From: Chrysoperla carnea
Lineage: Eukaryota > Arthropoda > Insecta > Neuroptera > Chrysopidae
Direction: 5' to 3'
Assembly (NCBI RefSeq): GCF_905475395.1
Contig: NC_058338.1
Coordinates: 90,939,435-91,003,434, forward strand
Length of the DNA stretch: 64,000 bases
Shown one piece after another: positions 8,601 to 35,500 of the stretch. The notes under the pieces were generated by a model that was not told the DNA's origin, ran no database searches, and saw only the letters and a program-made list of their open reading frames with translations. The position numbers were made by a program, and so were the translations under genes. The first letter of the stretch is position 1, and each line of letters begins with the position of its first letter.

Positions 8601-11600
8601 AAAGCTTGTGGTGTATTCGCTTGAAATGGTGCTTTTCCTGTTAAACATTGAAATACAATTGTACCTAAACTCCATAGATCGGCTTTGGCATCGTATTGAA
8701 TCGACATGATTACTTCAGGTGCCTACAAACAAAACGTAAATTAGTTTATTTGGCTTTGTGCCAAATTATAGGTCGAGTGTGAGCCTGGCTTGTAAAGAAA
8801 GGATTCGGAACGATAATTTAATCGATTTCAATGTTTTATAATAATCATTTTGGGAGGTGTTTTGAAAGAAATACTTAACACTAAAACTTTACATTTCCGA
8901 TCTACTCTTTGAAATGGACATAGTCGTTAATGTGGATACAGGTTTATAAAGTTATGGCATTTACTTTTTATCACGCCATAAAAAGTTGAATTGTTAGACA
9001 AATAAAGTTTAATTATTCTTGTTCTATTTTATCAAGTGCTGTAGTAAGGGATCATTAATTAGTTACACAAGAGTCAAAAAAAAGGGGGGAGGGGAATTAA
9101 CAAATCTCTACATGTTTTTATCTTGAGGGGGTGGGGTTAAACCTATTCTTATGTAATATTTGGTAAGTTCAAATTTAATATTAGAAATTTAGTTCCATTT
9201 TGGTTGTCGGAGGGTTTTCTCCATTCTATAATGTACACTTCGATTTACATCTTATTTTACTAAATATTTATTCTTTATTAAAATTTTAAAAATAAGTGAG
9301 TTTAAAAATAATAAACTGTTAGTTTTAGTGTAACTGATCCTTTTCTAACAGCATTTTAATTATTCTGAAAAACGAGATAGAATCTTACATAAGAAGAGAG
9401 GGAGGGCTCCGAGAAATCGAATGTATCCTTACATGGGGGTATGGCGCGCAAATAGCCAAAATCATCTTTACGTAATTAATAAATGGCCCCTAAGGCTCCA
9501 GGTCATTGGTCATAAACAAAATTAAAAAGCTACGGAACCCTTCAACTGGCACTTGTCCTAGTTAGTTTTAAGACTATAAAATAAATACAAACCATATACA
9601 TAGGTGATCCACACAAGGTCGCTGCCATAACACCATCTTGTAAGAAACGTGCAAATCCAAAATCCGCTAAAAATGGCAAATTTAAATAAGCAAAAAATTT
9701 ATTATTAAAATTCAAGCGGTAGAACTTACCGATTTTAAGTCTGATTTCCGATGGTTGAGGACATACTTTTGTACCATTATGCGATAATAGAATGTTTTGC
9801 GGTTTTAAGTCTCTGTGCACAATACCCTTAACATACAAAGCTTTCATTGCTCCGGCTAAAACCAAATAATTTTTCTATTAATAATTTCTTAAAATAGAAA
9901 ATGAGTTAACATTCTTCACATTAAGCGGGAATCGAACCCACAACTTCTGTGATTTTGGGACAGTGCCTTTGCTCATAAGTCGTTACTATGTGTATTTCTT
10001 AGACAACTATCTGAATTAGCCGTTCAGTTAACGGAATAGCCCGCAAAATCGTTATTTCTATAAAAATAATACAAATTTCGATTCTTACCCAACTGAACTA
10101 GAAACAAACGAATTGTGTCTTCACTTAACGTTCCTTTAACTGAAAATATAAACAAAAATTAACAAACCATCTTTCGAGGTACCATAAATGTATTGAGAAA
10201 AGAAAGATTTAGATTTAAAAGTTATTGAAATATTAAAATCTAACATAAAATGTATTTTCAAAAGCAAGCTCGAAAAATCTTTCCTATTCTCAATTTATTC
10301 AAGAAAAAGCTTTGAAATAATAGTAATAATTACCGTTTAAATAATCTGCTAAATCTCCGCCATTGCAATACTGAAATGAAAACAGAGAAATAATTAAAAT
10401 TTATCAATGGAGAGTGAGAATTTGAGCATAATGTGTGTGCTCTATGGTTAAGTCTATAAGGTGGGATGGTTGAAATTCGAAGGTTATGTGTTCAATTCTC
10501 GGCATCTCATTAGTTTATTAAAATTATAATTAACGTATCAGTAATATCAAAAAATTAAAAAATATATAATTAAGATAGCTTTAATAGTATCCGCCATGTT
10601 ATTACGTCACATGGCTGTGTACACTAAAAAGTTTAAATTGTAAACAATTATCATATAAAATATCAGCGCATTTGTTTACACAGCTAACTGACATCATTAT
10701 CACAGAGCAATATGGCGTCCACTGCGTCGAGCGTTTTCGTCCAAATTAAGCGCGAAAATTAAAATTATAAAATTTTAAATCTTTTTATGGCACTTATCGA
10801 TTGAATTAAAAATATTGTTGTTTATTTTAATGATTTATTTAGCATTTAATTTATAGCTATAGAATTTAATTGATACATTTTTCAAAAATTTAATATGGGT
10901 TTAATTGCCTATTGAATGCCTCTGTCTAGATATGATGGAGGAAGTAATATGCTTATGAATTTTTTCTGCAGAAATTTCATTTGTAGTAGTTGGTACCAAA
11001 AACCGGTTTCATTCGGCAATCCACCTTCTACAATCAAGATTGACAATCTAACTTCAATTACGAAAAAATTGAAAAGATCAAGAGTGTAAATGGCCTATAT
11101 CAAATCAAAGGCACAGACGTGTCTAATAAACGTAGATAAAATCCCTGTGTTATGATTTCATAATATTATCTATTTCCGGATTGTGATTCAATATTACCAG
11201 GAATTGAAAATTGAAAATATAAATTTTTACGAGCCATCTATCTAATCAATGAACATAGTTTTTATTTACATTTTAATTTTCTTAAAAACAGGCAGGGAAT
11301 TTATACTTATTTGTCAATTTCAAGGAACATAATTTGCGAGTTACAGGGTGTTCTAACGTTATTACTAGTATATTCTCTGCTGTTAAAGTTGTCAATGAAT
11401 TCTTTCATTTATTATAAAACTTATGAGTACAAATAACATACAAAAAAAGCAGCTTTACATAGCGTTTTATGATTTTAGTTGCTTTTTAACCCTCGAACCA
11501 AAAAAGGGGTGTTATAAGTTTGACAGCTATGTGTGTGTATTTGCCTGTTTGTCTGTGGCATCGTAGCGCCTAAACGGATGAACCGATTTTGATATTTTTT

Positions 11601-12379
11601 GTTTCGTTTGAAAGGTAATTTAATGGAGTGTTCTTAGTTTTACTTTCAAACGCGAGTTTAGGGTTCCATATCCAGAACAACTAAAAAATAGACAATGATC
11701 TTCAAAATCGTTTCAGTTTGGAAAAGGCTCCAAAGAAAAAGATAATTTAATGGATAATGTTCTTAGATATGTTTCAAGTGAGAGTTTAGGGTTCCGTAAC
11801 CGAAAACTTTATTGACTTGTTTGCGTTTTGGCCCATATGATGCGTTCTATTTATTAAAATTTGATGATTTTGGTGACGTTGGACTTGTCTGTGTTTTATC
11901 GTCAAGCCGGTTTATGTCAAAGTACCTACCTACGATTGATAGAAAAAAAATTATTCGTTTGTTGCAAACAGTTTTTATACCATGTATACATGTAATATAA
12001 ATCAAGGTATACTAAGTTTAGTCCCAAGTTTGTAACGCTTAAAAATATTGATGCTGCGAACAAAATTTTGGTACAGGTGTTCATATAATCACCTAATTAG
12101 TCCATTTTCGGTTGTCCGCCCGTCTGTCTGTCAACACGATAACTCAGAAAAGAAAAGAGATATCAAGCTGAAATTTTTATAACGTGCTCAAGACATAAAA
12201 AGTGAAGTCGAGTTCGTAAATGAGCAACATGGGTCAATTGTATCTTGGTTACGTAGGACCGTAGGTAAAACGTTTGAGATAGAATAAAAGTTTAAATGTA
12301 AAAAATATTTCTTATAAAAAATAAACAACTTTTGTCTGAAACATTTTTTTGTAAAAGCCGTTACAAAAAGCAAAAAAAT

Positions 12380-12437
<58 letters not shown>

Positions 12438-15400
12438 TTATTATTATTATTATTATTATTTATTTATTTGACTCTAAAACTTATCAATTTACAGCTTTTA
12501 ATTTAATCATACATTATATTTATAAAAAATAAAATAAAACAAATTGTTACTCTAACTTCTCCTTCCTTACGATTAATATTTTTTTAATAACTCTAGCTAT
12601 ATCCTTTTGCTTAAGTTCTTCTTTATTGTCCATCATATATATATATATATATATATATAGTTATTTATATATATGCCGTCATCTTGGAAAATACTTTTTT
12701 TGCTTTTTGTAACGGCTTTTACAAAAAAATGTTTCAGACAAAAGTTGTTTATTTTTTTATGAGGATGCAAGATCCAATGGACCTATGTCGCTTATTTACG
12801 AACTCTACTTCACTTTTTACCTCCTAGGCACGCTATAAAAATTTCAGCTTGATATCTTGCTGAAGAAGAAAATGCACTATTAAACAAGTGAAAACAAACA
12901 AATGAATGAGTTATTTGTTTAAATACCATGTATAGACAGTGTTGATTACTCTGTCACATTACACACACACACATATATATATATATACGCTCCAACGATT
13001 TTCATTAAAATCAGTATGCCGGGAATTTTGGGGCGATAAATCGATCTAGCTAAGTTTCATTTTTAGAAAACGTCGCTGTATCCATGTTTTAGGTACTGAA
13101 TAAAAAAATCTGGTGTCACAAACTTTTGGGTCAGTCCATAACTGTACTGGATTATGAGTTGGCTTTGAAAAATACTAACTGACAGACATGTTAGGAAATG
13201 CGAACTCAAGCTTGAATCTTTTTGAAATAATTATGCTCGTATTTCAAAAATTCAAAATCCTTATTCAAATTTTTCGTAAGTACATAATTAAACATACACT
13301 CATAAATTTTAATAAAAATTGTTCCATAAAAAACGGTACAAGAGAATATAGGCATTGCATACATATATATTATTATTTTTCTCTATTTATTTTAGCGAAG
13401 ATAACAAAATATTTAGATAAGATTATAAAATCAAGTAAGTTCTCCCATCATATCGTTTTAGAAATAATTATTATAATATTCGTTTTCTATATTCGTCAAA
13501 GATAATTGTTAAAAAGTGATCGCGGTCGCTATAGTAGTATTGTATTAACAATTTAATAATTTTATCATTTTAAATATTAAAAAAAATGATTATTTTAAAA
13601 TACATTGTATTGTTAATTTTTCTCAATCAAAAAGTTTATTGTACAGATGAAGGGTGAGTTTATTTTAAAAATATTTGATAAATAAATAATTGTTTAAAAT
13701 TGAAAACAATTTTTGAGTGGCGCCTTGATGTCGCGAAAAATCAATTGAAAAACAATTTTCATAGAATTTTTAAGAACCATACCTCATTAAGAATTTGTTA
13801 CGATCTGATGATTTTAAAATTATACGTTTTTGAATTTTGCAAACTAGTTTTGTTTTCTGGTCTTCGACTTCAAAAACTTTTTCATAAAGTTTGTGAGAGT
13901 CTAATAATACAGTGAATAAGCCGGAAAAAGTGTCGATAGTGGAAAAGTTGGGAAACAGCACCGATTTTAATGAAACTTTTTGTATCGTGTTTATAGGACC
14001 CCAAGGAGAACATTCAGCCAACTTAACCTAGTCATAGGGAGGAACAGGGTCTCAACGGGGGGCATATGAGTCCAAAAATTTTTTGAAACGCTTATTTTGA
14101 ATTAAATTTGTCATCTAGAAATATTTTTGGTCGCTGAATACGAATCCGATGTCAGATTACACGAATTCTGTCACGTATTCCGAAAATCGGCACAAAAAAC
14201 AAAATATTTTTGTTACAATCCAATATAATAAAATATTGACATTGGAAATAATAAATTTACATAATTATATCAAGGTATTGGTAGTTTTTGAGACAATATT
14301 CAGAAAAAAATTTTAATTTTTAATTACTGGCAAAAATGGCGCGGTTTTTAGTAGAAGTGACCAAATCCGTGCAATCTGACATCGGATTTGTAATCAGCGA
14401 CCAAAAATACCACAAAAATTCTTTAAGACTGAATACCGTAACATAAGAGAAGGTTAACATCAGGTCAAAGACCTCCTTAAATCCCTTGCGAAACGAACTC
14501 TGATATCGAAGTTATGTTGAAATCATCCTTTTAAAGGTAGAGGAATGGGAGTCAAAAAGGCAGGGGGTATATTATGTAATATTTGTTTATAATTCTTGCG
14601 AATAATAATTGTATTATTTATAAAGCATTGTCCAGCGAAGCGGGCGGTTATTGGCTAGTATTGAACATAAAAGAAATTTTTGTTATCTCCGGTGTTCACT
14701 TTTATACCCTGTATTACTATATATGTAATATATATTAAGGTATACTAAGTTTAATCCCAAGTTCGTAAGTGTCCATTTTCTCCAAAACTATAAAAGATAG
14801 ACTTGAAAATTTGCAGATAGCTTCAATTAGTGGTCTTGTGAAACGAAAGACCGCCATAATTGTGTTAGTTTTTTTAACTCTTCTAATTTATAAAATATTA
14901 ATGCAAGCTGTGACATTCAACACTTTCTATACAGGATATTTAAACAATTAACTCAGTTAATTATTTGTATTTAAACAATTTAGAAGATTTTATGTTAATA
15001 TCCGATTAAAAAGAATTTTGACACATGAAGAAAAGATATGAAATAAGTAAACATTATAAATTATTGAAACAGATTGTGACCCCATTTTCTATTTTCTTAT
15101 CACAAAAATATATTTCGCTAAAAGATGCATGTAATATTTGCATAAAACGTTCAGATATTTTTTAAACGACTTTATTGATTCATCGATAAACAATTTTCGT
15201 TCGTCAATTCACAATGAAGCAAAATTTCTATAATTTTCTTTGTACCTTTCTTTTTACCATTTAGAAAATTGATAAAGATAAGTTTGATAATAACGAAATA
15301 TGAAGTTTTAATCGTGGTTCGATTTTCGAATTAATGGAAATTGAATTTTTTATTTTCATGCTTAGAATTTCATGATAATTTTTTTTCTATCGTTTATGCT

Positions 15401-18400
15401 AAAAGAAAGTTATCGGAAAAATGTTAATATGTAGGAGCAAAGGGCAGAATATTTGCAACTGCCGAAGGGGTTAAAAATTGTATTATTCTATTTTTCAACC
15501 CTTTTGACCATTTTAAACATCTTTCCCTTTGTTCATACGTGACTTTATTTTAACATAAACGGCGGGTAAAAAAGTATAATGGAAAAACGAAAAAATAATT
15601 TCTATTAATAAAAAAAACTTCATTTTCATTTATAACCATAATTAAATTTCGCTTCATTATGAGCTCGCGGTCTATTAGGTATAATAATTAATTATAATTA
15701 TAAATTAAGTAATCATTATCAATGCGCAAATTTCATAAATTATCGATTTTCATAGTAGCATAGGTTTTTCCAGTAAACATATGTAAATTTCAATAGACTT
15801 TTCATAGATTAGAATTGACAATAAGTAAATAATTTAGTCATCGATAAAATTTTCTCTTGAAAAAAATAATGTCATAAAATAGTAAAATTTTTTTTTTAAT
15901 TTCCACTTAAACAAGTTTACTCATTTTCAAATAATTTAAGTAAAATAAAAATAAATTTATCTTAAAAAAATTGGTTTGAACGCCAGATAACAAGTGAAAT
16001 TTACAAAATTATAAAAATCCTCGATAAATGCAGATTTTTCCTTCTACCTCTCTCTAGGTTGAACTGATTTCCTTAAAACATAGCTAAAAACACTCTCCAT
16101 TAAATTACCTTTAAAAAAAATCTGTTCATCCGTTTAGGAGCTACAATGACACAGACAGACACACACACACATAGAGATCAAACTTATAACACCCCTCTTT
16201 TGCGCCGGAGGTTAAAAACCAAATTGAAAGTTTAATTCCAAACTTAGTTTTTGGTGAAATCATTAATAACGGAATGGGCCTATTTATAGCTCACAGAAGG
16301 AAGGAAGCTCAGAGAAGATTCTAAAAAATATTTTTTCTAAGAACCCCAAATTGAATCCGGGGAGAGGGGATAACAATTTTTTACAATTGAAAAATTGAGG
16401 CTTTAGAATCAAACAATCTGTAATTACTCTTCAGAACTTTATAAAAGATGTTCATAGATGATTTTAAAATTTTGAACTGCTTAAAAATTTAATTTATTTG
16501 CTTTAATTTACAGCTTTGAAAATAAACTTTCTGGGGTTTTTCCAAACATTAAATTATTAATAACTCCAAAACGGTGAGCTTTAGGAAAAAGTCACAAGGA
16601 GTCTTTTTAACGTTAACCCAAAAAACTATTGAAAAACTATTTGGTTCAAAAAATTGACATTTAAATGTTTCAGGGGAGAGGGAGGGATATACAAAAATTG
16701 GACTAAAAGGATTTCTGGCAACATCCGGATTATTAATCTATAAGCTAATTATTTTTTCCACCAGGAGAGTTGAGTGTGTAATATTACCCCCCTCCCCGAT
16801 TTGTAAAATTTCTTTCCTCAAATATTTTTTCCCACCAGGGTACATCTAGCGTCTGTTCTAAAATTCAAATTTGTTCTCAGAGATACCGCTGCGGATATAG
16901 CAGAGACACCAATAATACCATTAGTCGCAGCAGTTCAATCAACAGAAGTCCCATCACTGAGTCCTAGCAATACGACTTCAATATCGAACACAACCGGGAT
17001 AGTAAATTCAACAGAAACCGCTAATAATACAAGTACGACTTCTGAAAAAGATTTAGAAGTACGACTTCAATCAAATCTTACAATTACCTCAACAGAACCA
17101 TCTGTATTAAATGTAACATCATCTTCAGAAGTGCTACCAGCAGTTGTAGCCCCATTAAATTCCACAGAACGTATAATCCCACCAATAGCAACATGTCCAG
17201 CAGAATGTAAATGTGCGCCATCTTTGGTCGATGCAATTTGTACGGGACGTGGTTTACAAGATATACCACATGGTTTTTCAAGTCAAGTGAAAATGTTAAT
17301 ATTGACTAGTAATAATATCACGGAAATTGGTGAAAATTGTTTTAAAGAACGTAATTTATTTGAGTTGATGTCGTTGCTCATGAATCATAATCGAATTTCA
17401 ATTTTACATCCAAATGTAAGTATATCTATGAATGATTCAAAGAACTGAACCGGGGGATACCGAGTCATTCTGGAGCTTTGTGAAGCTCATACAAAATAAA
17501 ATTGCCCTTACTCTTGGCTATTTAATTTCATTATTACAACATCAGAAATGCAAAAGTAATCGGTGCTTTTGTTTAAGTTAACATATGCTTGAAACTTGAT
17601 AAATAAGTTTTATCGATAAAAATGCTTCAAGCAAAAAATGTTGGGTCTATAGGTGCACATCTTACGCAGGCATAAATTTGACCTAGGTTTTAGAGCTCAA
17701 TGAAAAGCTTTAAATTAGAAAGTTTTACTTTAAATTAGAAAGTTGTTGTCGTTTAAAAAAAAAAAAATTTTTCCGCGAAAAAGTTTAAAAATTAATGCAA
17801 GCACTGATATTCAACACTTTCTATACAGGATATTTCAAAAATTACCTCAGTCAATTGTTTATTTTCACTTGCTGTTTTTGTTTTTCAGGCATTTGTAGTT
17901 TTAAAGCATTTAGAAGTATTAGATTTAGGCGATAATCGATTAACAGTATTAAGTCCCGATTTATTTGTAAATAATATGGCTTTGACTATACTGCGCTTGG
18001 ATAATAACACACAATTACAAATCCCAGAAAGCGGGGCTTTAATAAATGCACCAGCATTACATGATTTAAACATATCTTCGTGTAATATATCATTTTTACC
18101 GAATGATATATTTTCTGGAACACCATTATTGGATACAATTGATTTAAGTGGAAATAATTTGAAAGTAAGTACGAAAATCTACTTTAATAGTTTAAAATCG
18201 GTGGAAATATCAATTACATCATTCTTTTACTTTCACTAAAGCCCAATCAAATGAAGATTTAAACTACTCATAGCCCAATTAAATGAAGATTTAAACTACT
18301 TTCAAAATGGAAGCCTACATTTTTGAATATAAGTTCGTTTTGACATAAATTTGAAGTATAAATAGTTAAAAATATTGAATTCTATTTAAGAGGTAGAAAA

Positions 18401-21400
18401 ACATTAAAAACTACCCCCAAAATCACTTTTTTGAACTATCTCGATTCTCAATTCATTAGTTCCAATTTAGACTACCAGATGGCACTGCTTGCACTTAAAT
18501 GTTCAAATTCTAATTCGCCAACTATCGATAATAATTCGTACTAATTAAAACAGAAAGAGGACCATTTTTCAGTATTTCCAATTTAAACTACCAGGTTACT
18601 TTCAATTTATCAATAAAAATAATTGTATTTTATTACAGGAATTAAATCCACTAGTTTTAAAAACATTACCCGATTTAATTGCAATCATATTACCAAAATC
18701 ATTCGAACCAAAAAGTCATGAAATATGTTTGGCACATGAAAAATTAGAGAAAATTGTTATATCAAATAAAGGTTACGAGGAAAATATTGAATGTGGTAAA
18801 TTATTATCAAATGCATCACTTCAAATATCAGAGATTATTGTACCGCCATTAATTACTGTGGATAATACAAAACTTCAAAATAATTACACTGGAGATGCTG
18901 TTGTTAATAGTACGGCGGAAAATATAATTAAAGTTGTTGCTAATTTATCGTCTGGCATATCGGAATCAAAAAAAGTAGTTAAATTGGATACGAACTCAAT
19001 ATTGTCTGATTCTGTAAGTCCACAAAATATTCAAAACGATAATGCACGTTCCAATCAATATTCCATGGCGGACTCACTCAACGAAAATGAAAGTAAGTAT
19101 GAGCAAAATTAAATTCGTTTTCAGAACAGCACAGTATTTTTCCCACATTATCATGCCTTTCTAAATAACGCACCATGGAATGTCAATGCACCCCCCCCCC
19201 CCCGCGCCATATCCATCTTGGATTTATCGTTTATTTGGATTTAAATGTCAGTCTAATTCGAATACCAAAATAATGTAAAACAAAATTTAAAGATTAAATA
19301 GCACCATGGAAACTTGTCCAACCATAGGCCAAACCCCGCCGTTTAAACGCTTCAACTTCATAGTACGTTCACCAAGCTACTGACATGAAATTTTTGTATA
19401 CTTGATAAAAACCAACTGGAAGATATTTTTCAAAATTTTTCGTACAGGTTTCAAATTTCGAAACATGTCGAAAAAAGTTATGAATTATTTCCTTTCTAGA
19501 TATGGATGACATAGAGCTTGAGGCAATTGAACCACCGACAACCAAATCTTACAAAAATTTTAAACAAAAGCCATTAACTAGCAAAGGATTAACCGGGACA
19601 CAAATTAACAATAAACTTATCGGAATATTAGTATCAATAATTTTAATCTCGTTAATTGCAATTATCATTAAATTTAACTCAGAGAAAATTAAACTATACC
19701 GTGAAAAGCGACGACAAGTTCGGCGGAGGCGTCCTCTTCCAGCTATCAATAGAGGGGAAACTACAGCGTTTAGAGCTGTCGTAGCAAATCAAATAAATTC
19801 TGATCAAGTATAAAATTTACAAATATTTCTGGAATAATCGATCTCCTTCTAAATTCGCTTTTTTTTCATATCATTAGCATCATTTTTTAACCGCCTTCAA
19901 AAAAAGGAGAAAGTTTTCAATTCGACTGTATTTTTTATGACTATTTTATAAAAAAAGTTTTTTTATTCAAAAAACAAAGTTAGTTTTTACGACGGTTGCA
20001 AAAGATTAACCTATGACTCTTGAAATTGCGAAAAGGTGCCTCAAATTTTAACCAATATGCTTGGATTTTTTCAAACATGGAAAGTATAAACATAAGAGAA
20101 AGAAGCATAAGAAAAGATACCAAAATGGTTTATTAAACATGTTTGCCGTTTCCGAGTTCATACCAGAAGCGTATGTAATAAAAGTCTACAAGTTTGGCCA
20201 AGTAACTTTTTCTTACTCTAATTAGGGTTTCTGCTCAATAATTCTCGAAAAATTTATCTTTAGTCGACGGGATCGAGAATACAATTCCGTATGCTAAGTA
20301 AATAAAAAAAATACCTGGATAATAGATTATATCCAAACTCAAGTTCTAATACAACCGAATTTTTCGACATCGGAAACCAAGATAATGAAGAGGATCTCAA
20401 ACTCAACAATGAATTATTTAACTTCAACTAAAAATGCCATTCAGGCAGCTGAAACTACTCCCACTCACATAATTAGAAATTTAATAAAAAAATAATTTCA
20501 GTGATTTGAGTATGTTGGGTAACGAACGTTTGAAAAAAATTACAAAGTTTTAGTGACTATGCAGCCAACATCGACGGAGAATGAACAAAATGTTTGTTTA
20601 GTTAACTAAGTTTTCATAGTACTAGTAATTTTGTTGATTTAATTTTACTAATTATTTTTTATTTAACTAAAGAATCATCTATCAGCCTACCTATTTCTAA
20701 TAAAGCAAAAGTTTGGAAAAAAACATATTGCTTTATTATAAATTTCAAAATTTATCGCGATACTCGAGAAATCCTGGTCGAGAAATAAGAAAGGTCGAAA
20801 AATCAAAAACTCTAATTCTAATTTAAGTTAAGACATTTAAAATCTTTATTGAAAAGCCTACTGTCGCAAGAGGGGTGGTTTTTAATGCCGAAAAAAATTT
20901 CAATTCTACTTTGATAGAAGGCATTCGATAGTTCATGCTGTGCATCGGCACGGCGAGACCATTAACCTTAAGTCTTTAACCCGTTTGAGCAGAATAATTT
21001 ATCTTTCGATTGAACATTGTGATTAAACCATATCTCCACAATTTTGGGAATCTCCTACGATTCCACTCATACAGCAAATTGGTGGAGACCTAGTGAAAGC
21101 CTATAGAAAATCGGTTCCATCTTGAGAGAAGACTGCTCCAGTAGAGAAGATTTGATTGTTTTTCGGCTCCAACTGTTTTTATATTTGAACGAACTCAAAC
21201 GTCTCTGAGGACTTGGGCACAATCAAGGAATTTGATTGCCGCACCCCTCCAATCTTTCAAAACTATTATTAGATATTTCAAATACTATTGAACTATCGAT
21301 TTATGTGATAAAAATTTCATAAATATTTAACTTTCTTTCTAGAAATGGAAGTACGTTTAGCCCCGACACAAAATCAAATTGAGACTAGTGAAAACAAAAT

Positions 21401-24400
21401 GGAATCTACAACAAGCCAAGGTTTATCCGGATCACAAATTGATAACATAATCATTGGAATATTATTAACAATAATTACAGTCACGGGCGCAGCAATAATT
21501 ATCAATTTAAATAAATCAAAAATTGATGCGTACTTTAAAAATCGACAACGGCGGCCTCCATCTCGACCGATCTCCAAAGTTAATGAATTTGAAATTGAAC
21601 CGCTTAAAAGTGTGGTTGCAAATGAATAAATTTTTTGTATACGCCGAAAAATTAGAAGAGGATTAAGAGGATACATACCTCCATAATTTCATGGCCATTT
21701 CATACTTATTTTGTGTATTTTTATTTTTAAAGAAAATTAGAAAAACCGTTTAATCTGTGATTATATATTTTTGATTTCAATAAAAAAAAATTAACAAATC
21801 AAAATAATTTTTTGTAAAGGTTGTGTAAAAGTTTCATTCCAGAGATAATCTTCATAAATTTAAAAATTTTAGAAAACTGCATATTTAATTAAAAATGAAT
21901 CAGGCAAGTTCAAAACTTTTATAAAAATTTAAGAACTTATAAAAGTTCGAATATATAGAAAATACAGGGTTGGGCAGGGAGGTATGAATGTTTTGAAAGT
22001 GGAAAGTGAAAACATTGATTACGTACGAAAAATAAAATCTGTTAAATGCTGTCCGTTTTGTCCACACACTTGATTATGAGTGACGAAGCCCATTTTCATT
22101 TGTCAGGAGTGGTAAACTAGCAGAACTTTAGGTATTGAGCTTCTTAAAATCCACGGCAACTCCATGAAAAATCTCTACACAGCAACAAATTGACTGTTTG
22201 GTGTATCATTAGTCGAAACTTCATTATTGGCCCTTACTTTTTCCAAGAAAACGATCGAATCGTCACTGTCGATACAGATCGTTACCTACCGATGCTGCGT
22301 GAGTTTTTTCTGCCACAATTGAGAAGACGAAGTATCAACCCCAACACAGTATGGTTTCAACAAGGTGGGGCGACATGCCATACATCAAGAGCTACTATGG
22401 AATTTTTGAGGCAGACCTTCCTTGGGCGCCACATTTCGTTGCGTGGAGATGTGGAGTGGTCTCCTCGGTCACAGGGCCTGTCATCTTGTGCCTCTTTTTT
22501 ATGGGGCTACCTAGAAGCACGTGTATACATAAACAAACCACGTACACTTGAAGCCCTAAGTGAAATAATAACACAAGAAATTCGAGCGGTACCACGTGCA
22601 ATGCTTCAAAGGAGTATGGACAACTTCTCACAACGTAGAGTATTTAACAGATGTTATTTTTCGTACGTAATCAATGTTTTAATTTTTTCCTCTTTAATTT
22701 TTAAAATGGCAACATCTAAAGTACACATTAAAAAAATAAATTTTGAGTATCGTTTAAAAATGAGTGTGTAACTGTTATTTCAAATCATCCATACCTCCCT
22801 GCCCAACCCTGTATATAAAGATTACCTCAGTTTAAATTTTCTCGGTTTAAACTATAAACAAGTGAAATTTACAAATATTAAAAAACCACCGACAAATTTA
22901 TCGGGTACGATACCCTAAGCTTGTACTTGAAACATAGCTAAGAACATTTTTCAATTACCTTTCAAACGAAATAAAAAAAGTCAAAATCTGTTAATTTGGG
23001 CGCTACGATGCCACAGGCAGGCACATAGGGGTCAAACTTATAACACTCCTTTTTTGATTCGGATATTGATTTGATTTGGATTGATTCGGAATAGAATTCA
23101 AAAACAAAAATAACAAAAAATTACATCCCGGTTCATATTACTTAAAAATTCCCCTTTTATCCTGTTTGTTTTGATTAATATAAGAAAAAATCTTAAAAAT
23201 AATACTTACTTCCATGACCAGAAATACATTATGGGATGATTCCTTACAATCCAAAAGTGCAACCACATTTTCATGATGTAATTCTGTTAGTTCCTACACA
23301 CACAAAAATTTGTTTAAATTTCATCCAAAATAAAAATTGCTTATAAAATGTGCTGCTTAATATTAAAGCTCTTGGAAAGTCTCAAAGACGAAATTTGCAA
23401 AATGGAAAATTTGAAATCCGCCGGATCCGCTATTTAATCTAAACAAAACGATCCGATCGAGCTAGTAGTTATATCGGATTTTTGTAGAAAATTTAGCGGA
23501 TCACAATTTTTTTTAAATCAATCCGTGTGATTATAGCTATTTAGCCAATTTATTGAAACTAGTATAGCTCAGTATAACAGACTTACATTAAATATAGACT
23601 GATTAAAATAACTTATAAACAAATCTCGTTCGCAAAAATGATGTCAAGTAAGCTACAGAAGATTATTTTAGGGTTGCTTTTAGATCCTCGAGTAGTTAGG
23701 AATTAATTTCGTTGGTTGAAATTATTTATCAAAATCCCTAAGAACTATTGTATTTTATCAGCTGTTATCAATATGATTAATCGTAGTGTCATTTTAATAA
23801 ATTTCGAGCTATTATATTATCGATCTATATTTATTTGATACACGTCTATCCGACAGATAGGTATGTACTTACTAATTGATAATAAGCAGCTTCTTAAAAA
23901 TTTAAAATAAATATTTATGTATCATTTTTTGAACATTTTAATTAACACACTTTTAATGAATTTGACAGTACTTAATAATCGTACATCCTTACAACGCCCT
24001 TATTCCCGCTTATATTAAGGTATTTTTTCTTGAATGTGGATAAAAACAACAATTTTTGAAGTTTTTAATTACAAAATTTCTGTAATTTTCATCGAATATT
24101 ATAAGTCTACTGTCATTTCCGGCCCAGTTCATTAAATAATTTATTTTTCTTCACACTTTTAAAAAAAATACTTTATACATAAATTTGTAAAACAAAACAT
24201 ACCTTTAATATTTTAATCTCCTTTCCCAATAAATTCTGTGACTTAGCTAAACTCTTCTTTGTAATACTTTTAATCGCAACAATTTCGTCTGGACTCTATA
24301 TAAACATGAAATAAAAACATCAATGTATTGTAATTTATGCATATTTACAAAAATAGAAATGCAAATAAAAACACATTTAAAAGATATAAATAATGTGCCT

Positions 24401-24493
24401 TACCTTACGATTGCGACCTTTAAAAACAACAGCAAAAGCACCATGCCCAATTAAATCTTTCGGATTATATTCATAATCACCGATAATTTCCAT
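2647..24493 (-). CDS. Atg1: Autophagy-initiating Ser/Thr kinase Atg1/ULK (unc-51-like), complete
   Basis: Atg1/ULK phosphorylates Atg13, Atg9 and other targets to start autophagosome formation. Fifteen coding exons join in frame: 24404-24493, 24203-24295, 23210-23293, 10334-10370, 10089-10139, 9730-9855, 9593-9666, 8562-8722, 8336-8487, 8151-8273, 6974-7100, 6645-6909, 5007-5528, 4659-4944, 2647-3002 (2547 nt, 848 aa). The protein begins [20 protein letters not shown]. Visible motifs are the glycine loop IGHGAFAVV (15-23), K39 in VAIK, HRD at 132-134, DFG at 162-164, activation-loop T177 and SPMYMAPE. A Ser/Pro-rich linker follows, with DDFVLVP at about 349-355 matching the ULK LC3-interacting motif. 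The C-terminal part ([11 protein letters not shown] to the end, with [10 protein letters not shown] and [12 protein letters not shown]) matches the ULK early-autophagy-targeting/Atg13-binding domain. Length is as expected for insects. Intron 3 (12.8 kb) carries a nested plus-strand gene. Confidence 0.95.
3101..3253. repeat. Short inverted-repeat element, family K, copy 1
   Basis: The ends read ATAGACCTTTTCATTT and, inverted, ATAGACCTTTTCATTTCAAT. An inner TTCGGACGG/CGGTCCGAA pair adds a second arm. It lies in the last intron of Atg1. A longer relative with the same end motif spans 62116-62540. It looks like a MITE. Confidence 0.6.
3768..3957 (+). repeat. Dispersed repeat family A, copy 3
   Basis: Truncated copy that includes the CATCCGTTTAGGCGCTACAA segment, CAGACAGACACACA and a terminal AACACCCTTTTTTGGTTCG. 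It lies within an Atg1 intron. Confidence 0.7.
5640..6330. repeat. Repeat family C, copy 1
   Basis: Shares long segments with 13950-14430, including GGTCGCTGAATACGAATCCG and ATCCGATGTCAGATTACACG. Within the copy the phrase 'CGCTGAATACGAATC' and its inverse 'GATTCGTAGTCAGCGACC' occur at opposite ends, so it is partly self-inverted. It lies in an Atg1 intron (5529-6644). Confidence 0.65.
7101..8150 (-). other. Atg1 intron, no exon seen
   Basis: AT-rich intron with no coding signal. A reverse-oriented 5' part of repeat B occupies about 7779-7989. Confidence 0.6.
7779..7989 (-). repeat. Repeat family B, 5' fragment
   Basis: The reverse complement matches the first ~200 bases of the copies at 11972, 26110 and 29860 (shared ACTAAGTTTAGTCCCAAGTT and a run of CCGTCCGTCTGT-like bases). 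Confidence 0.7.
8723..9592 (-). other. Atg1 intron, no exon seen
   Basis: No coding signal and no repeat recognised. It contains G-rich and C-poor patches at about 9088-9140. Confidence 0.5.
10586..10690 (+). repeat. Repeat family F, copy 1
   Basis: The block running from ATCCGCCATGTTATTACGTC through TGTGTACAC to ATATCAGCGCAT is present in inverted orientation at 25550-25650. Confidence 0.65.
11489..11815 (-). repeat. Dispersed repeat family A, copy 4
   Basis: Long reverse copy starting TAACCCTCGAACCAAAAAAG. It contains two internal blocks each resembling 'GTTCTTAG.T.T.TTTCAA', so the full family appears to contain an internal duplication. Confidence 0.75.
11972..12377 (+). repeat. Repeat family B, long copy interrupted by a microsatellite
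   Basis: Starts TTTTTATACCATGTATACAT, then ACTAAGTTTAGTCCCAAGTT, a CCGTCTGTCTGTC run and AACACGATAACTCAGAAAAG. It stops at the (TA)n tract at 12384. The last ~200 bases recur inverted at 12688-12870. Confidence 0.75.
12384..12462. repeat. (TA)n then (ATT)n microsatellite
   Basis: About 23 consecutive TA dinucleotides, then a short break, then nine ATT units. It sits at the axis of an inverted pair of repeat B pieces. Confidence 0.95.
12635..12659. repeat. (TA)n microsatellite
   Basis: About twelve TA units. A mixed (AC)n(AT)n tract follows at about 12960-12987. Confidence 0.9.
12688..12950 (-). repeat. Repeat family B, inverted 3' part
   Basis: The reverse complement matches the end of the 11972-12377 copy, then continues with the family's terminal motif (GTGAAAACAAACAAATGA, and ATACCATG at the far side). 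Confidence 0.7.
13586..21629 (+). CDS. Secreted-type leucine-rich-repeat single-pass membrane protein with two alternative last exons
   Basis: Exons are 13586-13653, 16881-17415, 17889-18164 and 18639-19092, then either 19500-19813 (548 aa) or 21343-21629 (539 aa). All junctions are GT-AG and keep frame. Residues 1-19 form a signal peptide ([13 protein letters not shown]...VYC). About 100 residues rich in Ser/Thr/Asn follow, then an LRRNT-like cysteine cluster CPAECKC...C (128-143), about six LRRs (roughly 155-345, e.g. [19 protein letters not shown] and [12 protein letters not shown]), a charged stalk and a membrane helix. The family cannot be named more closely than an extracellular LRR adhesion or receptor-like protein. 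No intracellular signalling domain (TIR or kinase) is seen. The whole gene lies inside Atg1 intron 3 on the opposite strand. The first exon rests on the signal peptide and frame match only. Confidence 0.8.
13950..14430. repeat. Repeat family C, copy 2
   Basis: Matches 5640-6330, including AACATTCAGCCAACTTAAC, GGTCGCTGAATACGAATCCG and, near the end, the inverted AATCAGCGACCAAAAATACC. Confidence 0.65.
15989..16215 (+). repeat. Dispersed repeat family A, copy 5
   Basis: Begins CAAGTGAAATTTACAAAAT and ends near AACACCCCTCTTTTGCGCC. It is internally shortened compared with copies 1 and 4. Confidence 0.7.
17575..17790 (+). repeat. Repeat family H, partial copy
   Basis: Matches the left part of the element at 58767-59302: ATATGCTTGAAACTTGA, then ATAAGTTTTATCGATAAAAA and TGCTTCAAGCAAAAAATG. 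It lies in intron 2 of the LRR gene. A piece of repeat B's 3' end follows at 17808-17876. Confidence 0.65.
18240..18302 (+). repeat. Tandem duplication of a ~32-bp unit
   Basis: The unit reads AGCCCAATCAAATGAAGATT then TAAACTACT, and is repeated once with a C to T change. It is in an intron of the LRR gene. Confidence 0.85.
18470..18610 (+). repeat. Repeat family E, copy 1
   Basis: Shares TAATTCGTACTAATTAAAAC and TTTCCAATTTAAACTACCAG with two units at 63430-63530 and 63585-63690. Confidence 0.65.
19500..19813 (+). CDS. Alternative last exon 5a of the LRR gene (tail a)
   Basis: Preceded by a TTCCTTTCTAG acceptor and in the phase left by exon 4 (one base carried over). It encodes an acidic juxtamembrane segment ([14 protein letters not shown]), a motif [11 protein letters not shown], a helix at about residues 484-503 ([18 protein letters not shown]), an Arg/Lys-rich stop-transfer ([12 protein letters not shown]) and an end [12 protein letters not shown]. 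It is homologous, segment for segment, to exon 5b at 21343. The nearest AATAAA is at 20177. Confidence 0.75.
19814..21342 (+). other. Between the two alternative last exons
   Basis: No coding exon was seen. AATAAA occurs at 20177-20182, 20301-20306, 20483-20488 and 20699-20704, any of which could end the short transcript form. A pyrimidine-rich acceptor CTTTCTTTCTAG lies at 21331-21342. Confidence 0.55.
20177..20182 (+). terminator. Candidate poly(A) signal for tail a
   Basis: First AATAAA downstream of the tail-a stop codon at 19811-19813. Confidence 0.35.
21343..21629 (+). CDS. Alternative last exon 5b of the LRR gene (tail b)
   Basis: Enters in the same phase as exon 5a (the carried base plus AA gives Lys, then ATGGAAGTACG). 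It encodes [11 protein letters not shown], the motif [10 protein letters not shown], a helix at about residues 480-499 ([21 protein letters not shown]), a basic stretch ([11 protein letters not shown]) and an end LKSVVANE. Aligned with tail a, it shares GL[ST]G[ST]QI[DN]N, the helix pattern, the basic border and the VVAN near the C terminus. It must be reached by skipping 5a, which has its own stop codon. Confidence 0.75.
21779..21784 (+). terminator. Poly(A) signal for tail b
   Basis: AATAAA about 150 bases after the stop codon of tail b. Confidence 0.55.
21965..22811 (+). mobile_element. Degenerate mariner/IS630-type DNA transposon with intact terminal repeats
   Basis: The terminal inverted repeats begin CAGGGTTGGGCAGGGAGGTA, extend about 35 bases and are flanked by TA on both sides (21963-21964 and 22812-22813). 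Inside are remains of a DDE transposase. [10 protein letters not shown]-like codons lie around 22077-22106, then a separate frame at 22190-22771 encodes [20 protein letters not shown] and [14 protein letters not shown]. In this family FQQDGA carries the second catalytic Asp. Here it is Gly, and the third-Asp region is also altered. With the N-terminal DNA-binding part missing, this is a dead internal-deletion copy. Confidence 0.85.
22190..22771 (+). pseudogene. Transposase remnant (DDE domain, C-terminal half)
   Basis: An open frame of 193 codons inside the element at 21965-22811. It keeps the family texture ([37 protein letters not shown]) but has lost catalytic residues, and its first codons join at a frameshift to the upstream [10 protein letters not shown] block. 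It is not expected to encode an active enzyme. Confidence 0.8.
22855..23060 (+). repeat. Dispersed repeat family A, copy 6
   Basis: Begins ACAAGTGAAATTTACAAAT and ends near AACACTCCTTTTTTGATTCG. It directly follows the mariner-type element. Confidence 0.7.
23294..24202 (-). other. Atg1 intron 2, no exon seen
   Basis: AT-rich, with no coding signal and no repeat family recognised. Confidence 0.5.
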
Positions 24494-25549
24494 TTTGGAA
24501 ATAATTTATTTAAACACTTAAAATATTGCACTAAATATTAACAAATAAAATAATTTAAATCAAAAACACATTTTAAAAAATAAGAAAAAAAAGGTATATT
24601 TTTAATGACTTAAAATCAATAATTCTTATTTTGTAAACATACTTTAAATGATAATTATAAATGTTTATTTACGAAAAGATATTTATTTACAGTTATTGTT
24701 TACTTTTATTGAGTATCACATTTTGAATTTATTTAAAAGAATTATTCTGATGACATTTGTTTCTTTTTAAAAAGAATATAAAAACACATTTGCAAATCAA
24801 TTTGACACCATTGTACTACTTTCAACCATTTTCATCGTGTAAAACGTAATTTAGGTTTAAATCCATAGACATACTAATGTTTATGTAATGATACTTTAGA
24901 ACTATTATAGAGCCATCTATTATTGACTTTTTTAAACTTCATAGCTCATATGTACAGCTGACATATTTGATATTTGATATTTCCCTCACATTATACGCTT
25001 ATTATTATCGGATGCTTTTTATTGGAAGGGGATTTTTGATTGTTCAAAGGGCGGAAAGGGGCTGAAAAGTATCTACCTACTATAAAATATATAAACAGAT
25101 CAGACATCTCCAAAGCCCATCGTGTTCTAGGAGTTATAACACAGATTTGTAACGCACCCCCAATTCTTCTCGTTGACTTTCAATATGGTTCATTAGTCTA
25201 TATTTTCAGGGAAATCATGACTGATAAATGACTAAATAGGAGTACCGTTGTTGAAGCTAATTATGAGCCATCTATTATCTATTTCTCATAAGTATTTTCA
25301 TATGCCTAGTTTAGTTAAAACTCCTACAAGACCTCTATATATATACCATACTACCAGATTAATACTACCTGCACCATAGAAATCGAGGCAGTGTTTTGAG
25401 CAAGATAATTGATATACTTCACTTTGAAAATCCTACCACCTCTTACACGAATCTCAACCAAAAGACTCACCGAGCAAACTTTAACATAACATAATAGAGT
25501 ATTACACCCATTTTTTGAAAATTATCTCAGTTAGATTCAATAGAGATGC

Positions 25550-29572: not shown

Positions 29573-32500
29573 TTAAACATTTATTAAATTATCTTGTTTA
29601 TTATTTTCTTGTCCAGTCAATTTTAATTTTTGTTGCATTTGTGCTAGCATATCTTGCATTCGCCGAATCTGTAAAAACAAAAATATTATTAGCTTAATCA
29701 GATTAGTTCTTATAATAAGAATGCATTTTTATTGATTTAGAGATGAGACATTATTATTGAATTAAATATCAGGGCACTCAAAATAATAATAAATTTAACT
29801 ACTGATGATGATTGCAATTGAAATATGGATATTTTTCGAAATATAAGTCTGTTGTATGATTTTTATACCATGTATATGAAACATGCAAGGTATACTAAGT
29901 TTAGTCCCAAGTTTTTAATTCTTAAAAATATTGATGCTACGAACAAAATTTTAGTATAGGTGTTCATATAATCACCTAATTAGTCCATTTCCGGTCCGCC
30001 ATTTCTGTCCGTCTGTAAGTCTCTCTGTCAACACGATAACTCAAAAACGAAAAGAGATATCAAGATGATATATTTATAGCGTGTTCAGGATATAAAATGT
30101 GAGTTCGAGTTCGTAAATGAGCAACATAGGTCAATTGGGTCTTGGGTCCGTAGGACCCATTTTGTAAACCGTTAGAGATAAAACAAAAGTTTAAATGTAA
30201 AAAATGTATCTTATAAAAAATAAACAACTTTTGTTTGACACATTTTTTCGTTAGCATCACTGTTTACACGTGAGAGCTCAAATTATATAGTTTGTATTAT
30301 ATGGGAATATCAGTTAAGTGTGTATGTATTTATGTATTTTTGGCTACCTTTCTTTACTGATATGACGTAAAAAAACAAGCGATTGCGTAATCAACTCTGT
30401 CTTTACATGGTATTTCAACAATTAACTCAGTCAATTGTTTGTTTTCACTTGCTAATTATATTTTTTGAATAAAATTTTTAATATTCAATTTTATTTCTTT
30501 TATCGTATTTATTTCAATAACTATTATTTCTCAGTTAAGTCCTAAAAACTTGAGACTAAATTCTTTGCAGTTAGAAAATAGTTTTAGAATCACTTATCAA
30601 TTTAAATCGATCCTAAAAGGCGAAGAGTCTAAAATTTCTCCGCTTCTAGAAACAGAGCATTAAAAAAATTGATTGTTTATGAATTTGAAGTTGCCCACAG
30701 TTGAAACGTACTAAAAAAAGCCTCAATTCTTGTTAAAGTGTTCCGGAAAACTTAGCAAAGCTAAAATTTGATGGTATACTGTAAACTATGCAGGTTATGG
30801 ATGCCTGGATAAATTCAACGGAGAACTTAAGAATATTTACCTCTTCATCCTTTTGTAATAAAAGTCGATCAGTTTCATTTTCATTAAATGTTGGTCCTGA
30901 ATCTCTTTTCAATTTCCTGTAATCGAAAGAATAATTTGTTAGCTTGCGCAAGCAAAATTATTATTACAAAATTATTAAACTGAAACTTACCCTCTTTCAC
31001 GCAAAGCATGCTGAGATATTTGTGAAATACATTGAGCTCGGAAATTTTCATAATGGACATCTTGCGTTACATCTTTTAAATCTTGCATATGCGTTGATAT
31101 AAGCATTGTGCGTAATTTTACAAAATCGCTATGTTTAGGATTTTCAACTGAAAAAAAGATTTTCTTTAATTTATTCCCAGATACACTATGCTAAATTATT
31201 TGTGAAGATGCGATTAATTTCTTTCCAAAATGTAAAAAAATCTTTCCAAAATGTAGCGAATATTTTCCAAGGCTAGGTTAGGTTAGGTTAAAGGGGCTGC
31301 TCTGAAGTGGGACACACTTAGACCATAGGGTCCGTTGTGATACCGAAAAAGGGTTGGCTCATCCCCGGCAACTACTCCATGAACCATTTGGAGCTGTTTA
31401 AGAACAGCAGAAGAGCTTTGACGTAGTCGGACTTTAGGTCGGAGAGGTCGTCAAAGAGAGGCTGGCTCAAGTAAGCCCATCTCCTCATGACAAGAGCTGG
31501 GCAGTGACAGAGAAGATGAGACATTGTTTCCTCCTCCTTACCACTGTGAGAGCTCCTGCAGTAATCGTGATACACTGCCAGGCCCAGGCGTTCAGCATGC
31601 CTGCCGCCCAACCAGTGTCCTGTAATAGCCGCAACAATTTTGCGAACAGAGGTCCTTGGAAGTGATATAAGATCTTCGGAACGCCTGCGATTGTACTCAG
31701 ACCATATCTGTCTTGTAATACCACAAGTACGTTCCTCCCTCCATCTAAGTTTGGCCCTTTTAAGATACCCTCTTTGAGGAGCAACTTGCAGTTCGCAAAT
31801 GGAATTCCCGGATATTTATTGATGCTTGTGTCCGGCAGCATTTCCTGGAATGTCCCGGTACGGCAGTCCTGTGCTACCTTTGACGTTAGATAGACTGAGC
31901 TGAAGGATTTAAGAGCTGCTTGGCTGTCGGTGAAGATTGTAATGTCCCTGCACCTAAGGGTGTTCAGTCTTATACATTCCTCATGAATAGCCATCACTTC
32001 CACTTGATACACGCTTCAGTGATCTGGCAGCCGAAATATAATTTCCAAGATATTGCCTGAAATCGTGTACAAGAGCGATATTTCGGAAATATTTTAAGAG
32101 ATATCTCAAAACCTTTTAAGTTAGTTGTTAAAAAAATATAATTTTTGTTTTATTTGGTAAAATTTACCATTATAAACTGAGTTATCAATGTTTTTGTAAA
32201 AAGATTTCTTGCAATTTTACTTACCATCGACTACACCCCATGGATACTGACGACCTCGAACTTTTCTTCCAGATATTTCTAAAACAGTATTACTTCCCAC
32301 AACTGCAAACGGTACACTTGCTTTAAGCTCTCGATCTTGTTGTTTAAATTCGTCATCTTCATCACTATCACATTCGGGAAATTGATACATCTAAAACGAA
32401 ATTTTATTATGGAATCGAATTTGATAAATTTTTCACTGTTTTGTTCAAATATTAACCTGAATTTGATGCTCTTCTATGTCTGCAAGAATTCCCTCTTTTA

Positions 32501-35500
32501 ATTTTTTTACTTCAGTTGTTGTAAGAGTATCCGCTTTAGCAATAACTACAACAATATTCACCTTTCTATGTAATCGTTTCATTAATTCTAAATCCATTTG
32601 TCTTAAACTGTAAACAAAAATTTTTATTAGTCAGTAGTCGTGATTCATGTTCTTCTCCCAAATATATTATAATATTATATCGATTTTTATCATCTGAATG
32701 CCGCCGTTGTTGGAAATAAAAAATTTTATATGCAAATGTTTTTACAAGAAAGTAAAAACGGTTGTCTATACAATTGCAAGAGCATAATCCATTCCATTTC
32801 CATACTTTGCGATAAAGCATATCAACCCTCAGAAAATGTTTAAGGCGGAAATATGAATCACAAATGTGCACCTGGGTAAAGATATCCGACAATAAAGTTA
32901 CTAGAGTATACAAAATTTAAGGATGTATTTAATTTAAGGATGTAAGAGCACCAAGGCAATTTTAAATATAAAGTTGGGATGAGTCTAAATCAATTCTGAT
33001 AATTTTATGGAGGGGGGGGGGGTGTTGCCCGATTATTTAAATAAATAAATGACTTCAAAAGTAGGCATATTTAACATTGGTTTTATATGGTAAAACGGTA
33101 GATGGATGATATGTTTTCATAGATTTCTCTAAAACTAGTCGGAGGAAATTTAAAAAAAAAACTATTTAAATTAAGGCTTATTAAAAAAGACATGAGATTT
33201 GAATGCGGTTTTCTAAAAATAATGTGCATATTAAGCAGGGTTCGAAAATATCCGATATTTATTATAAATATTAAAATATCGAATATTTTTGATATATTTC
33301 CGATATATATCCGATATATGTATATCAAAATTTTGCTATTTAAAAAAAACTAAAATGTTTTAAAGGTTTTATTTACTTAGACACTTCAAATCAGACAAAT
33401 GAAACCAAAACATAAAATATTCTTCTAGATCAGGCAAAATCAATTAAAAATAATAAAATTTTTATAAATAAAAATCAACTTTAAAACAAAAAACAATTTT
33501 ATAAATTGTTATCAGTCATACCTACACTTAGGCAACAAAACAATAAACATTACAAATAATAACTCTAGAGTATAATCAATCTTTTAATTATAAATCAGTC
33601 ATCAGTCATTCGTAATAAACTGTTAATTATAAAAAAAAAATGTCGTTTCATAATTGTGCGAACTTTTTCTGACACGACACGATTTGAGCTTAGTATTAGT
33701 AGGTTTTAACTCTACTCCAATGCCATCAAAATTTGGGAAGTAGAAATACGGTAACAAACGCCAAAAATTACTAAATAATATTAAATTTTTAAAATTATTT
33801 TTGTATTGATTCAAGTGATATATATCGGATATATATCATGATATATATCCATTGATATATATCCTCGAACCCTGATTTTAAGTTAAAAATTGTTACCCGG
33901 GGTTTTTGGAGTCGCTGAGCACGAATATCAGATTGGTATCAGAATTGGTCCCCAAGGTACCTGATGCCCAGGGTGAACGGTATCTCCGTCGTCTCTAGCA
34001 GTTTTTGGGAAATTCGTTAGATAATCGATTCAAACTCGTTGCTGACTTATAGTTAGGACTGATTATATAGAATTTCCCGAAAACTTCAAAAGACGGCCTG
34101 ACGCGATAGTCTTTCTCATCGATCCCAAAAACTTCCGAGTACTAAGTTTGGAACCATTTTCATCACTATTAACCGAATTGTGAATTTAGTATATTTACGC
34201 GGTTAATTTAAAATGCATATTATTTATGCAAATTGCATATTTTTAATCTCTTATAAATCAATTTAGTTCACAAAATTTCCTGATGTTCTTACGAATCGAA
34301 TGCAGAAAACCGCATTCAAATCCGTTTTACTGTTAAAATTTTCAAACTTCGGTGTTTCGTTTCTGCGACTAGCATCCAAGCAATATCCCCATATAAATTA
34401 TGACTCACCTATGGCCCCATGGCGGAACGAAATATAAACAACAATGTACACGATTATCTTGTATATTACGTCTATTTAAACCACTTTCATCAGTAAAATA
34501 TTGACGGAATTGTTCATCAATATATGCTGTACAGACTCGCCAACTATCCTCACAATTAACTGCATCACCAAATCCGGGTGTGTCCACAACAGTTAATCGT
34601 AATTTTACTCCACGCTCTTCAATATCCATTGTTTTCTTTTCAATGCATGTTGTTTTTTTAATACGTTCACTCACATCAGGTATATGTCGATTTTTATATA
34701 AATCGCCTAAGAATAAACTGTAAACAGAATAGAAAATAAAATTTTATAGATCCGATAAAAATCGACTTAAATAATTTTAAATACCTATTTATTAGAGTTG
34801 ATTTACCAAGGCCGCTTTCACCAACAACCATTAATGTGAAATCAAAACCTCGTTTCACTGATTTTCGATGTACTTGTTCTGGCAGTGTAGCAAATCCAAT
34901 ATAGTCTCTTTCTCCCTTGTCTGTATAAAACAAAGTCAAGAATCATATCTGGTATCTAATTAAACAAAACAGTTGGGAACTTACGAATATGATTATTTAT
35001 CTGGGATAATAGTTCAGACTCTCAATATGGAAAACAACTTTTGGTTATAATTTTATCAAAAACAAAAATCCAAAAAAGTTGCACAAAAATTTGCCCCGGA
35101 ACGACCTTTTTTGAAAATTTTTGAAAAAAGCGGTTCTTTGGGAAAAATATTGATTTTCGCTGATAACATCAAATAGGAAAGTTGAAGATAATTCAAAAAT
35201 AGGTATTGTGAGACAAAAAAGATCATTCCTGGGCAAATGTGCAATATTTTTAGATTTTTGTTTTTGATAACATTACGAACCCATCCCCCATGGTCACGAA
35301 TTGTGTAAAAATTTCGAAAAACGACTTAGAGTGGGATAGGACTTTTTTTTACATCTAAGGGACTATAACTGAGGTTGTTTGTAGCCCCATATCTGTATAT
35401 AGCCCTTAATTGCGATATCATTTATAATTAAAATACGGTTTTTTGCACAAAACTTCTATAGATAGTTCCCATAAAATTTTATTTTTCATATTTGATGACG

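What the first reader, a model, noticed from the sequence alone, without database searches (positions are those of the whole stretch)
19500..21629. Duplicated, same-phase alternative last exons give one LRR receptor-like ectodomain two membrane tails
Exon 4 ends with a one-base carry at 19092. Two separate exons, 19500-19813 and 21343-21629, both have strong acceptors, both enter in the correct phase, both encode a linker, a helix, an Arg/Lys-rich border and a tail, and both end with a stop. They share GL[ST]G[ST]QI[DN]N before the helix and VVAN near the end, so they arose by duplication, but the juxtamembrane and cytosolic parts have diverged. The duplicate being kept with open frame and phase suggests that both tails are used, perhaps for different localisation or partners.
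Basis: partly seen in the sequence, partly recalled or inferred. Interest (0 to 1): 0.75.

Follow-up and report, generated by a model that had tools for sequence, protein, structure and literature searches.

The report
Insect LRR receptor, duplicated membrane-tail exons
In what looks like the green lacewing genome, a cell-surface protein gene carries two diverged copies of its last exon, each able to give the same outer domain its own membrane anchor and inner tail; this is a good new example of a known kind of exon duplication, and whether both copies are used is not yet shown.

Summary
At 19500-19813 (A) and 21343-21629 (B) lie two exons that follow exon 4 (last base 19092) in the same phase, behind equally pyrimidine-rich acceptors. 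Each encodes a stalk, a strongly hydrophobic helix, a basic border, a short tail and a stop. A and B are homologous: 41.6% identity over 77 residues, E 4.7e-13; their flanks are not alike beyond the acceptor tract. Pairwise omega is 0.40 and omega = 1 is disfavoured (2dlnL 6.48); neutral simulation rarely keeps either frame open. A tandem last-exon duplication with lasting coding constraint is well supported. Use of either isoform was not testable. The gene encodes a 548- or 539-residue LRR protein and lies antisense inside a 12.8 kb Atg1/ULK intron. The genome matches Chrysoperla carnea in scaffold number and nearly in size. Most likely mechanism: alternative last-exon choice, perhaps by poly(A)-site bypass. 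New member of a known kind (compare neuroglian tails, Dscam1 exon 17, Capping protein beta); modest interest.

The parts
13586..13653 (+). exon 1 (inferred): signal peptide [22 protein letters not shown], donor gtgagt
   Evidence: of 5 signal-like ATG frames in 9000-16999 the only one with a listed donor of the phase that exon 2 needs; sequence printed. No transcript evidence; 5' untranslated exons not sought.
16881..17415 (+). exon 2: Ser/Thr-rich stretch with N-glycosylation sequons, LRRNT-like cap and first repeats (an alternative acceptor gives start 16839, same phase)
17889..18164 (+). exon 3: LRRs
18639..19092 (+). exon 4: last LRR and stalk, donor at 19093, carries one base
19500..19813 (+). 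tail exon A: stalk, hydrophobic helix, basic border, cytosolic tail, stop
19859..20071 (+). cluster of five T runs of 6-8 after tail A (candidate U-rich regulatory stretch; post hoc, speculative)
20218..20827 (.). dispersed repeat in the spacer between A and B
   Evidence: query positions about 405-1014
21343..21629 (+). tail exon B: stalk, hydrophobic helix, basic border, cytosolic tail, stop
21779..21784 (+). AATAAA 150 nt after tail B stop, candidate poly(A) signal

Best explanation
A last exon encoding stalk, helix and cytosolic tail was duplicated in tandem (shown by sequence). Both copies stayed under coding constraint while synonymous sites diverged by about 0.9 (supported by a pairwise estimate). 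Each copy has its own acceptor and stop, and no GTRAG donor lies between A and B, so a transcript would take its last coding exon from either A or B. One LRR ectodomain would thus get two alternative membrane anchors and tails (inferred). The choice would be made by whether A is spliced and polyadenylated before transcription reaches B (inferred, by analogy with neuroglian and erect wing).
For: Phase, acceptors and open frames. Homology confined to exons and acceptor tract. Omega 0.40, 2dlnL 6.48 against omega = 1; NG86 dN 0.505, dS 0.919 over 77 codons. Neutral branches of 0.46 leave A open in 2 of 1000 and B in 10 of 1000 simulations. Whole-genome search with tail A finds A and B (2 of 2 matches); with tail B it finds B, A and one match at E 2.94. 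Among the listed ectodomain matches the best outside this gene is 28% identical, so B does not look like the last exon of a second recognisable gene copy. No GTRAG donor at 19760-21342.
Against: No transcript evidence for either junction. Omega rests on 77 codons, averages both copies, and dS near 0.9 is imprecise. At a short neutral branch (0.2) 48 (A) and 69 (B) of 1000 frames stay open, so a recent loss of one tail is possible. No AATAAA is clearly placed behind A: the nearest are 19792, before the stop, and 20177, 364 nt past it; such hexamers are frequent in this AT-rich DNA, so B's signal is weak evidence too. Three weaker GTRNG sites follow A.
Confidence: 0.72

Rival explanations
1. Only one tail is used now; the other is a lapsed duplicate that has not yet collected stops.
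For: Frames can survive a short neutral time: 48 and 69 of 1000 stay open at branch 0.2. No RNA evidence exists here.
Against: Open frame, hydrophobic helix, acceptor and phase are intact in both copies; omega below 1 over a long divergence.
Confidence: 0.2
2. Exon B is the remains of a tandem duplication of more of the gene, or belongs to a transcript from another promoter, and is not spliced to exon 4.
For: PMC3228551 (passages) warns that homologous exon candidates can reflect tandem gene arrays.
Against: In the listed matches (153 found, not all listed; 125 of 240 candidates scored) none lies near B except exons 2-4 themselves, and the next best is 28% identical and 18.7 Mb away. B fits the carry of exon 4 exactly.
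Confidence: 0.05
3. A soluble ectodomain made by reading on past the exon 4 donor (SKYEQN, then stop) is the alternative that matters, and the two tails are redundant.
For: The read-through frame stops after six codons and an ATTAAA hexamer lies at 19108.
Against: Intron read-through stops soon in AT-rich DNA anyway, and such a hexamer is common by chance.
Confidence: 0.03

Closest known systems
Drosophila neuroglian (Nrg167/Nrg180) and other ELAV-controlled alternative last exons
   Same: One ectodomain with different cytosolic ends (PMC2346466, passages); last-exon choice through bypass of the proximal poly(A) site (PMC8055025, passages).
   Different: In Nrg the ectodomain and transmembrane segment are identical; here the helix is swapped too and the two exons are homologous copies. 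ELAV dependence not tested.
Dscam1 exon 17 alternatives
   Same: Two alternative exons encode the transmembrane region (PMC5465998, passages).
   Different: Mutually exclusive exons inside the gene; here they are terminal and carry stops.
Homologous 3'-terminal exons such as those of human Capping protein beta
   Same: Homologous last exons used as multiple poly(A) sites (PMC3228551, passages).
   Different: Cytosolic protein without a membrane anchor (recalled).
LRR ectodomains (IGFALS, LGR4, LRRC15)
   Same: Among the top sequence matches in solved structures, of 251 sequences at E up to 0.001 with 60 shown; Pfam LRR_8 E 2e-22.
   Different: Orthology not assigned; LRRNT below its cut-off and LRRCT not listed by Pfam.

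Membership tests
Tandem-duplicated alternative last exons | two homologous terminal exons in the same phase | tested here: met
Tandem-duplicated alternative last exons | both end in a stop and have their own acceptor | tested here: met
Tandem-duplicated alternative last exons | each has its own working poly(A) site | tested here: inconclusive
   hexamers listed; none is decisive
Tandem-duplicated alternative last exons | both found in transcripts | not testable with these tools
   no RNA data
Single-pass LRR surface proteins | signal peptide, LRRs, transmembrane helix, cytosolic tail | tested here: met
   signal peptide and helix judged by hydropathy only, and further helices were not sought systematically
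ELAV-type poly(A)-bypass targets | U-rich sites by the proximal poly(A) site | tested here: inconclusive
   five T runs in the 400 nt after A; 20 of 3180 sampled stretches reach five; chosen after the fact, and A's poly(A) site is unknown
ELAV-type poly(A)-bypass targets | dependence on ELAV proteins | not testable with these tools
   needs an experiment

The most novel reading that the evidence does not exclude
A tissue-switched receptor in which ELAV-type bypass of tail A changes stalk, transmembrane helix and cytosolic tail together while the ectodomain stays the same, with a possible third, soluble form from intron 4.
Probability: 0.15. Interest if true: 0.45.

Novelty: new member of a known kind. 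Interest (0 to 1): 0.3.

Why it matters
If both tails are used, this gene is a compact natural experiment: the same ectodomain on two anchors that diverged from one exon. It allows a direct test of how swapping helix and tail changes sorting or signalling. The kind of event is already known, so the gain is a good case and not a new principle.

Tried and rejected
Pfam on the tails gave nothing above its cut-off: DUF2106 E 0.099 for A; Podoplanin E 0.0016 and Usp38-like_N E 0.14 for B. I read these as likeness of a hydrophobic helix.

A splice from A on to B was considered: no GTRAG donor at 19760-21342, though three weaker GTRNG sites exist.

Further tail copies were looked for by taking every AG at 19110-24599 with at least 60 open codons in phase. 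Besides A, B and AGs inside their frames, this gave one 65-codon frame at 20299 with no hydrophobic segment, and frames inside the transposase-like stretch at 22248-22587.

Literature: the listings (15 of 36 papers; 2 of 2; 1 of 1; 5 of 5; 3 of 3; 10 of 866; 2 of 2) show no title about this gene; the gene has no name to search by, so this is weak evidence of absence. The only hit was unrelated (passages). The lacewing venom paper PMC12758981 (12 of 15 passages) mentions LRR proteins in venom and alternative splicing in C. carnea; nothing seen there links it to this gene.

Relatives: no insect collection was on hand apart from the window's own genome; the viral, phage, plasmid and prokaryote collections were not searched. 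No structure was predicted.

Full report
Setting. The window is G000:C2:90939435-91003434 of a genome of 559,487,470 bases in 337 contigs. The Chrysoperla carnea assembly inChrCarn1.1 has 337 scaffolds, 560,248,701 bases, six chromosome-level scaffolds and a longest one of 140 Mb (PMC10116181, passages). I take the species to be C. carnea from this match of numbers; the 0.14% size difference is unexplained and no marker gene was compared.

The gene. On the plus strand: exon 1 13586-13653 (signal peptide; inferred), exon 2 16881-17415 (or from 16839, same phase), exon 3 17889-18164, exon 4 18639-19092, then A 19500-19813 or B 21343-21629. The joined frames are 548 and 539 residues. Residues 24-125 are 32% Ser/Thr and 16 N-glycosylation sequons lie before the helix. 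LRRs follow (Pfam LRR_8 E 2e-22; LRRNT below its cut-off). Top sequence matches among solved structures include IGFALS, LGR4 and LRRC15. Orthology to a fly gene was not tested.

Host intron. The minus strand carries Atg1: a peptide joined from four of its exons matches ULK2 at E 1.4e-39 and ULK1 at 2.2e-37. One Atg1 exon ends at 23210 and the next begins at 10370, by their splice sites, so the whole LRR gene lies antisense in an intron of 12,839 bases.

The two tails. A and B align without gaps over 77 residues: 32 identical (41.6%), 50 positive, E 4.7e-13 with composition adjustment. Identity is 9 of 18 in the outer juxtamembrane part, 10 of 19 in the helix and 13 of 40 in the cytosolic part. 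The cytosolic ends differ in charge: A has 13 K/R and 4 D/E in 47 residues, B 9 and 5 in 41. A ends in DQV, which resembles a class III PDZ ligand, and B in ANE, which does not (motif recalled, not tested). Outside the exons the DNA is not alike beyond the acceptor tract: 25 of 60 bases match before and 23 of 80 after. Apart from their own overlap, the only strong blastn match between the two regions is 67 bases inside the exons (E 2e-10; the next is E 0.03).

More than chance. Of 5697 AGs in the first 63,000 bases of each strand, 84 are followed by at least 93 open codons in this phase and 2 of these also have a strong acceptor; they are A and B. Over all three phases 5 sites pass, 4 of them in this gene.

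Constraint. NG86 gives dN 0.505 and dS 0.919; a codon model gives omega 0.40, with 2dlnL 6.48 against omega = 1. Simulated neutral branches leave A and B open in 48 and 69 of 1000 (length 0.2), 2 and 10 (0.46), and 0 and 2 (0.92); base changes only, starting from today's frames. This argues that both served as coding sequence for most of their history. It cannot show that both serve today.

Copies. Tail A finds A and B in the genome and nothing else at E up to 10. Tail B finds B, A and one match at E 2.94, taken as chance. The ectodomain query returned 153 matches at E up to 1, not all listed; three are its own exons and the best other is 28% identical, as expected for a large LRR family. The tool scored 125 of 240 candidates there and calls such counts lower bounds.

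3' ends. B has AATAAA at 21779, 150 nt past its stop, and another overlapping the stop at 21625. From the end of A to B the AATAAA sites are 19792 (before A's stop), 20177, 20301, 20483 and 20699, with variant hexamers between. Such hexamers are common at about 69% A+T, so none is strong evidence. A repeat with many genome copies fills about 20218-20827, so about 400 bases after A are unmatched by it. Those hold five T runs of six or more; 20 of 3180 sampled 400-base stretches of the window reach five. Three places in the window hold such T clusters, and three hold such A clusters. In ewg and nrg, Elav blocks the proximal poly(A) site and so favours the distal last exon (PMC8055025, passages). 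The T cluster makes that a lead for this gene, but it was picked after the fact.

Verdict. The structure is a tandem-duplicated alternative last exon with evidence of lasting constraint, of a kind already described (PMC3228551, passages). Use of both tails is likely but unproven. In checking this report I lowered one rival (soluble form) from 0.05 to 0.03 so that the odds add up, and corrected its read-through length to six codons.

Noticed in passing
21963-22813: A transposon-like element with exact 24-base inverted ends (at 21963 and 22790) and a 207-codon frame that looks mariner-like by recall (no Pfam match at E 0.001) lies just downstream of tail B.
   Followed up: partly
10371-23209: The LRR gene is nested antisense in an Atg1/ULK intron; whether other insects share this nesting is unknown.
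   Followed up: partly
20218-20827: Member of a dispersed repeat family with dozens of matches elsewhere in the genome.
   Followed up: partly
47178-47591: Exon of a GBP-domain GTPase gene (Pfam GBP E 4.1e-29), atlastin-like by recall.
   Followed up: no
34405-34942, minus strand: Septin-like GTPase exons, by recalled motifs only (frames).
   Followed up: no
31372-32015, minus strand: Frames that look like a non-LTR retrotransposon remnant by recall; no Pfam match for 31372-31812.
   Followed up: no
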